From an uncultured Clostridia bacterium (GTDB lineage Bacteria > Bacillota > Clostridia > Oscillospirales > Acutalibacteraceae), in NCBI GenBank assembly GCA_946539105.1, contig CAMNHG010000003.1, positions 1-34,451 of the forward strand: 34,451 nucleotides of DNA. The letters are read 5' to 3'. Positions 11,589-11,699 of the stretch are shown piece after piece (position 1 is the first letter of the stretch; each line of letters begins with the position of its first letter). The position numbers were made by a program, and so were the translations under genes. The notes under the pieces were generated by a model. It made no database searches, was not told the origin of the DNA, and was given only the letters and a program-made list of their open reading frames with translations.

Positions 11589-11699
11589 AGTGTTTCGCAG
11601 CTCAAAATGCGAACTGTTTATGAAAAGTGTTTCGCAACTTTAATTGCGAACTGTTTATGAAAAGTGTTCCGCAGCTTTAAATGCGGATTTTAATGAAAA
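11589..11699 (+). ncRNA. Predicted type III antitoxin RNA: three tandem 37-nt repeats
   Basis: R1 11589-11625 AGTGTTTCGCAGCTCAAAATGCGAACTGTTTATGAAA; R2 11626-11662 AGTGTTTCGCAACTTTAATTGCGAACTGTTTATGAAA; R3 11663-11699 AGTGTTCCGCAGCTTTAAATGCGGATTTTAATGAAAA. Each has a stem (TTCGCA/TGCGAA in R1 and R2, TCCGCA/TGCGGA in R3). Confidence 0.87.

What the first reader, a model, noticed from the sequence alone, without database searches (positions are those of the whole stretch)
11589..11699. Tandem 37-nt repeats show stem covariation, indicating a selected RNA structure
R1 and R2 carry TTCGCA...TGCGAA and R3 carries TCCGCA...TGCGGA: a U-A pair is replaced by C-G with both sides changed. In R2 the stem is also extended by an A-T pair (TTCGCAA/TTGCGAA) where R1 and R3 have G opposite A. 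The period is exactly 37 nt and junctions are A-rich (TGAAA|AGTG), plausible sites for toxin processing, by analogy with ToxN cleavage of ToxI in A-rich sequence. This argues against simple DNA repeats.
Basis: partly seen in the sequence, partly recalled or inferred. Interest (0 to 1): 0.8.

Follow-up and report, generated by a model that had tools for sequence, protein, structure and literature searches.

The report
ToxIN antitoxin RNA repeat array
The three 37-nt repeats are the RNA antitoxin (ToxI) of an ordinary type III toxin-antitoxin system, each unit predicted to fold into a pseudoknot that inhibits the RNA-cutting ToxN protein encoded just downstream; it is a new member of a well-known phage-defence family, not a new kind of system.

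Summary
The repeats are real: 3.1 copies, period 37, 11588-11700. They are the ToxI antitoxin of a chromosomal type III toxin-antitoxin locus. A perfect consensus promoter (11522-11550) is followed by three repeats, a 13-bp terminator-like hairpin (11700-11729) and toxN (11750-12364; Pfam ToxN_toxin 2.3e-32; AlphaFold model matches solved ToxN/AbiQ). Each unit fits an H-type pseudoknot: S1 = positions 1-4/13-16, S2 = 8-11/22-25. Over 49 distinct units from 19 loci, 99.2% of pair cells form, six of eight pairs change on both sides, and the covariation score is 0.51 against 0.28 in shuffles (0/500) and at most 0.16 when slid. A close relative genome has the empty site, so the ~0.9-kb module is a discrete unit. 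A-rich junctions are only partly conserved; processing is untested. New member of a known kind; low surprise.

The parts
11522..11550 (+). sigma-70 promoter of the toxIN operon: TTGACA, 17-nt spacer, TATAAT
   Evidence: 12 of 12 consensus match; inference from sequence, start site not mapped
11588..11624 (+). ToxI unit R1: S1 GAGT/GCTC (11588-11591 / 11600-11603), S2 TCGC/GCGA (11595-11598 / 11609-11612)
   Evidence: covariation across homologues
11625..11661 (+). ToxI unit R2: S1 AAGT/ACTT (11625-11628 / 11637-11640), S2 TCGC/GCGA (11632-11635 / 11646-11649)
11662..11698 (+). ToxI unit R3: S1 AAGT/GCTT (11662-11665 / 11674-11677), S2 CCGC/GCGG (11669-11672 / 11683-11686)
11700..11729 (+). 13-bp terminator-like hairpin, its U-tract inside the 3' arm, between antitoxin and toxin; presumed leaky transcriptional terminator
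   Evidence: fold of 11696-11760: -22.5 kcal/mol, z -5.9; also. Not listed by the consensus scan, which wants a U-run after the stem
11739..11744 (+). probable ribosome-binding site AGGGAG before toxN
   Evidence: sequence inspection; inference
11750..12364 (+). toxN, 204-aa endoribonuclease toxin; catalytic residues K42, T61, S62, K64 by alignment
   Evidence: PF13958 2.3e-32, PADLOC AbiQ 6e-30, PDB ToxN 1e-12, AlphaFold model and Foldseek
11484..12368 (.). whole module, absent at the same site in relative genome G064 (locus L113)
   Evidence: blastn: window 10340-11483 and 12369-13760 align to adjoining DNA of L113, 158-1302 and 1309-2712

Best explanation
This is a chromosomal ToxIN-family type III toxin-antitoxin locus of a gut Clostridium related to Ruminococcus. 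From one strong promoter the cell makes a repeat RNA; most transcripts stop at the hairpin 11700-11729 (inferred) and a minority read through into toxN (inferred). ToxN, an RNase, cuts the precursor at each junction into single units (inferred by family analogy). Each unit folds into an H-type pseudoknot (S1 and S2 supported here by covariation) whose single-stranded ends occupy the ToxN active site, giving a closed inactive RNA-protein ring (inferred). Phage infection or loss of transcription would deplete the short-lived RNA, free ToxN and stop growth (inferred from characterised ToxIN and AbiQ).
For: Toxin family, fold and catalytic residues. Order promoter-repeats-hairpin-toxN; tandem repeats before toxN recur in most relatives. 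Pseudoknot covariation: 49 units, 99.2% paired, 65 both-side-changed cells against 14.6 in shuffles; the six variable stem pairs hold ranks 1, 2, 3, 6, 7 and 10 of 496 column pairs by corrected mutual information; repeated changes on the ToxN tree. Published ToxI features matched: 34-36-nt units in 2.8-5.5 copies (PMC5086642); four-pair S1 and S2, conserved G5, junction triple (PMC8860590). Empty site.
Against: No expression, processing or toxicity data. No Rfam family reaches threshold, though Infernal models cannot represent pseudoknots. The pseudoknot-free MFE fold draws R2 into an extended pairing with its neighbours instead of three like hairpins. Junction A-richness is not conserved in relatives.
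Confidence: 0.96

Rival explanations
1. The unit is a plain stem-loop (TTCGCA/TGCGAA, 7 bp in R2) recognised as a hairpin, with no pseudoknot.
For: MFE folding draws the hairpin in each unit and its central four pairs covary.
Against: Its outer and upper pairs fail: alignment columns 11-30 paired in 23/49, 16-25 in 9/49, 17-24 in 4/49; overall 67% of cells against 99% for the pseudoknot. S1, which only a pseudoknot explains, covaries at ranks 2, 7 and 10 of 496.
Confidence: 0.03
2. The locus is a degenerate, non-functional ToxIN remnant.
For: It is a draft assembly of 232 contigs, 81% complete, and one relative has a broken toxN (L091, the same locus as L015/L028).
Against: Here toxN is an intact 204-aa frame with all catalytic residues, a perfect promoter, an intact hairpin and all 24 pseudoknot pairs.
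Confidence: 0.06
3. The repeats act as something other than an antitoxin, such as a cis-regulatory leader of toxN or a protein-binding DNA array.
For: They lie between a promoter and a gene.
Against: Compensatory changes preserve RNA pairing rather than DNA sequence, and repeats of this design adjoin toxN in most relatives, as in characterised ToxIN.
Confidence: 0.02

Closest known systems
ToxIN of Bacillus thuringiensis, Pectobacterium atrosepticum and E. coli (PDB 4ato, 2xd0, 7d8o)
   Same: ToxN fold and catalytic K/T/S/K, tandem short repeats before a terminator and toxN, H-type pseudoknot with four-pair S1 and S2, conserved G5, junction triple
   Different: 24-27% toxin identity in the structural alignment; unit 37 nt rather than 34-36; loop 2 appears one base shorter than in E. 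coli ToxI; no Rfam match
AbiQ/antiQ of Lactococcus lactis (PDB 4glk)
   Same: same toxin family (PADLOC AbiQ model 6e-30); 2.8 x 35-nt repeats, A-rich cleavage (PMC5086642)
   Different: 23% identity; antiQ sequence not compared here
Uncharacterised gut ToxIN with 36-37-nt repeats (L032-L047, L055, L091; relatives such as P0006, which NCBI already names ToxN/AbiQ family toxin)
   Same: about 50-66% toxin identity, repeats with the same pseudoknot; L039 repeats nearly identical to R3
   Different: in many of them the last unit is a distinct sequence class; junction letters differ
ToxIN on Clostridioides phage ES-S-0107-01 (L142)
   Same: 50% toxin identity over 155 aa; three units with the same pseudoknot layout
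   Different: carried by a phage; units spaced 35-36 nt; middle unit forms 7 of 8 pairs

Membership tests
ToxIN type III toxin-antitoxin | ToxN/AbiQ-family endoribonuclease gene | tested here: met
   PF13958 112.8 bits against cut-off 25; phmmer to four solved ToxN/AbiQ; Foldseek TM 0.77-0.81 by target length
ToxIN type III toxin-antitoxin | catalytic residues K33, T52, S53, K55 (E. coli numbering, PMC8860590) | tested here: met
   K42, T61, S62, K64 by alignment; K42 and S62 invariant in the 30-sequence alignment
ToxIN type III toxin-antitoxin | tandem array of short repeats (about 34-40 nt) directly upstream of toxN | tested here: met
   3.1 x 37 nt; similar arrays in relatives
ToxIN type III toxin-antitoxin | Rho-independent terminator between repeats and toxin | tested here: met
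   13-bp hairpin with U-tract; termination itself not measured
ToxIN type III toxin-antitoxin | H-type pseudoknot in every repeat unit | tested here: met
   covariation of S1 and S2; not probed chemically
ToxIN type III toxin-antitoxin | ToxN cleaves the precursor between units and assembles with them into a closed complex | not testable with these tools
   needs RNA end mapping and biochemistry
ToxIN type III toxin-antitoxin | toxin arrests growth, RNA neutralises it; abortive infection | not testable with these tools
   needs experiments
a curated Rfam family | covariance-model match | tested here: not met
   nothing over any gathering score, and no antitoxin family among matches to E 10
CptIN type III toxin-antitoxin | CptN-type toxin as best structural match | tested here: not met
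   Foldseek to CptIN 4rmo E 0.019, TM 0.40, far behind ToxN/AbiQ

The most novel reading that the evidence does not exclude
In this ToxIN subfamily the repeat units are not interchangeable copies. Each position in the array keeps its own stem sequences over long times, and the last unit is often a distinct class whose S1 and S2 have both been replaced in a compensated way; units may therefore have position-specific roles (assembly order, less mis-pairing between neighbours, or resistance to phage-borne ToxI mimics). The pattern is seen in relatives, only weakly in the window itself.
Probability: 0.3. Interest if true: 0.4.

Novelty: new member of a known kind. Interest (0 to 1): 0.22.

Why it matters
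The set of 36-37-nt ToxI units collected here gives a covariation-supported consensus for gut ToxIN antitoxins that the Rfam scan does not detect, and it is consistent with the base triple at the stem junction seen in the E. coli crystal structure. That would help annotate type III systems in gut genomes.

Tried and rejected
Rfam scan, default and permissive: only chance matches. Single-sequence search of genome contigs found no relative; a profile of 30 homologues found 80 loci. Viral contig scan: none, but the phage collection gave one 50% relative. An extra outer S1 pair (positions 0-17, AAAG/CTTT) that I first suspected is not supported: rank 283 of 496. Idea of a general hotspot behind mnmA: downstream genes vary widely between relatives, so it stays a weak hint. 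No paper on this exact locus or repeat was found in the held library.

Full report
Observation. Three successive units at constant spacing that each form eight pseudoknot pairs occur once in the window, in none of 60 shuffled windows, and nowhere else in about 226 kb (both strands) of relatives' loci apart from the window's own copy.

What it is. The next gene, 11750-12364, is a ToxN/AbiQ-family endoribonuclease: PF13958 at 2.3e-32, PADLOC AbiQ, and by sequence the solved ToxN chains of B. thuringiensis, P. atrosepticum and E. coli and AbiQ. An AlphaFold2 model (mean pLDDT 84.8) matches the same four structures with target-normalised TM 0.77-0.81, and CptIN only weakly. The active-site residues K33, T52, S53 and K55 named in PMC8860590 correspond to K42, T61, S62 and K64. 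Before the repeats stands a perfect consensus promoter at 11522-11550; between repeats and gene is a 13-bp hairpin with a U-tract at 11700-11729. This is the gene order used to define type III systems (PMC5086642). Unit length (37 nt) and copy number (about 3) are close to those of characterised ToxIN (34-36 nt, 2.8-5.5 copies; PMC5086642).

Structure. Relatives were collected with a profile of 30 homologues. Most of those with upstream sequence carry tandem repeats of 33-56 nt, ending 37-179 nt before the start of the toxin match. Numbering the unit from 11588, all three window units have S1 = 1-4 with 13-16 and S2 = 8-11 with 22-25, in the order S1a-S2a-S1b-S2b, which is an H-type pseudoknot.

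Test across loci. In the 37-nt group units were cut by stepping along each array from an anchor unit and kept whether or not they paired; the anchors themselves came from a pseudoknot scan, a mild bias, and a few stretches that were terminator rather than repeat, or shifted by a base, were dropped or re-registered by eye. On 49 distinct units of 19 loci (alignment A2, gapless) 99.2% of cells pair, 6 of 8 pairs change on both sides, 65 cells are compensatory against 14.6 in shuffles, and the covariation score is 0.508 against 0.278 (0/500) and 0.159 or less when the partner is slid. Ranked over all 496 column pairs by corrected mutual information, the six variable stem pairs are ranks 1, 2, 3, 6, 7 and 10. 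On the ToxN tree the same pairs change repeatedly (9-24 about four times, 10-23 five times in the last unit), though many forks of that tree are unresolved and unit order may be shuffled by recombination. Adding units of a second, 36-nt group (ToxN about 42% identical) gives the same picture.

The upper A-U pair (12-21) forms in 9/49 and the claimed R2 extension (13-20) in 4/49, whereas 13 pairs with 4 in all 49. Positions 12-20 and 12-21 nevertheless covary (ranks 4 and 5 of 496; triples such as C-G-A, C-G-C, A-A-U, U-A-C). In the E. coli ToxI crystal structure the corresponding place holds a U12-U22 pair that interacts with G21 as a triplet (PMC8860590). I therefore read the window's A12-U21 as the junction pair of such a triple; this is an inference. 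The conserved G at position 5 matches the G5 described there.

Junctions. ATGAAAAG follows R1, R2 and R3, in keeping with cleavage in A-rich sequence by ToxN and AbiQ; before R1 it is ATGTAGAG. In relatives the letters just before S1 vary (AAA, ACA, TTG), while ATG at -4 to -2 is nearly invariant in the 37-nt group. Processing in register is plausible but unproven, and the cut site may differ between relatives.

Mobility. In the relative G064 (MnmA 93% identical) the sequence runs from mnmA straight to the downstream gene: window 10340-11483 and 12369-13760 align to adjoining DNA of L113 (ending at 1302 and starting at 1309), so about 885 bp, the toxIN module and nothing else, is present or absent. 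Related toxins lie in records labelled Bacteroidales, Pyramidobacter (Synergistota) and a spirochaete MAG, and one, 50% identical with the same kind of repeats, on a Clostridioides phage; this fits horizontal spread. The host is inferred to be a Ruminococcus-like Clostridium because same-genus genomes (G067, G034, G057) coincide in contig number, length and match position with GenBank contigs labelled uncultured Ruminococcus sp..

Verdict. A ToxIN-family type III antitoxin, new only as a member. The most interesting loose end is that units in relatives evolve by array position rather than in concert.

Noticed in passing
L032, L034, L037, L041-L044, L046, L047, L055 (last unit of the array): In many relatives the last repeat belongs to a distinct class (such as AGGTGCGCCACTACCTTAAACGTGG) with both pseudoknot stems replaced in a compensated way; units at the same array position are more alike between loci than units at different positions, so the array does not evolve in concert.
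   Followed up: partly
L003 and L004 (G067, G034), compared with window 11400-12364: A different ToxIN lineage (40-nt repeats, about 42% toxin identity) sits directly behind mnmA, the same site as in the window, while G064 and G053 have that site without it.
   Followed up: partly
window 11722-11744: The 3' arm of the terminator hairpin (CTCCCTT) is complementary to the region of the toxN ribosome-binding site (AAGGGAG), a possible alternative pairing in read-through RNA.
   Followed up: no
window 12602-13306 (-): A 234-aa protein with two helix-turn-helix matches, whose region is also present at the empty site in L113, so probably not part of the module.
   Followed up: partly
window 20670-20704 and 20796-20828: Two short arrays of 7-bp repeats (AAAATTG and TAAACTC) at the end of a proB-like gene and before a proA-like gene.
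   Followed up: no
L091 (same locus as L015/L028): toxN interrupted by a stop or frame break next to an intact repeat array: an antitoxin array kept beside a broken toxin, or a sequencing error.
   Followed up: no
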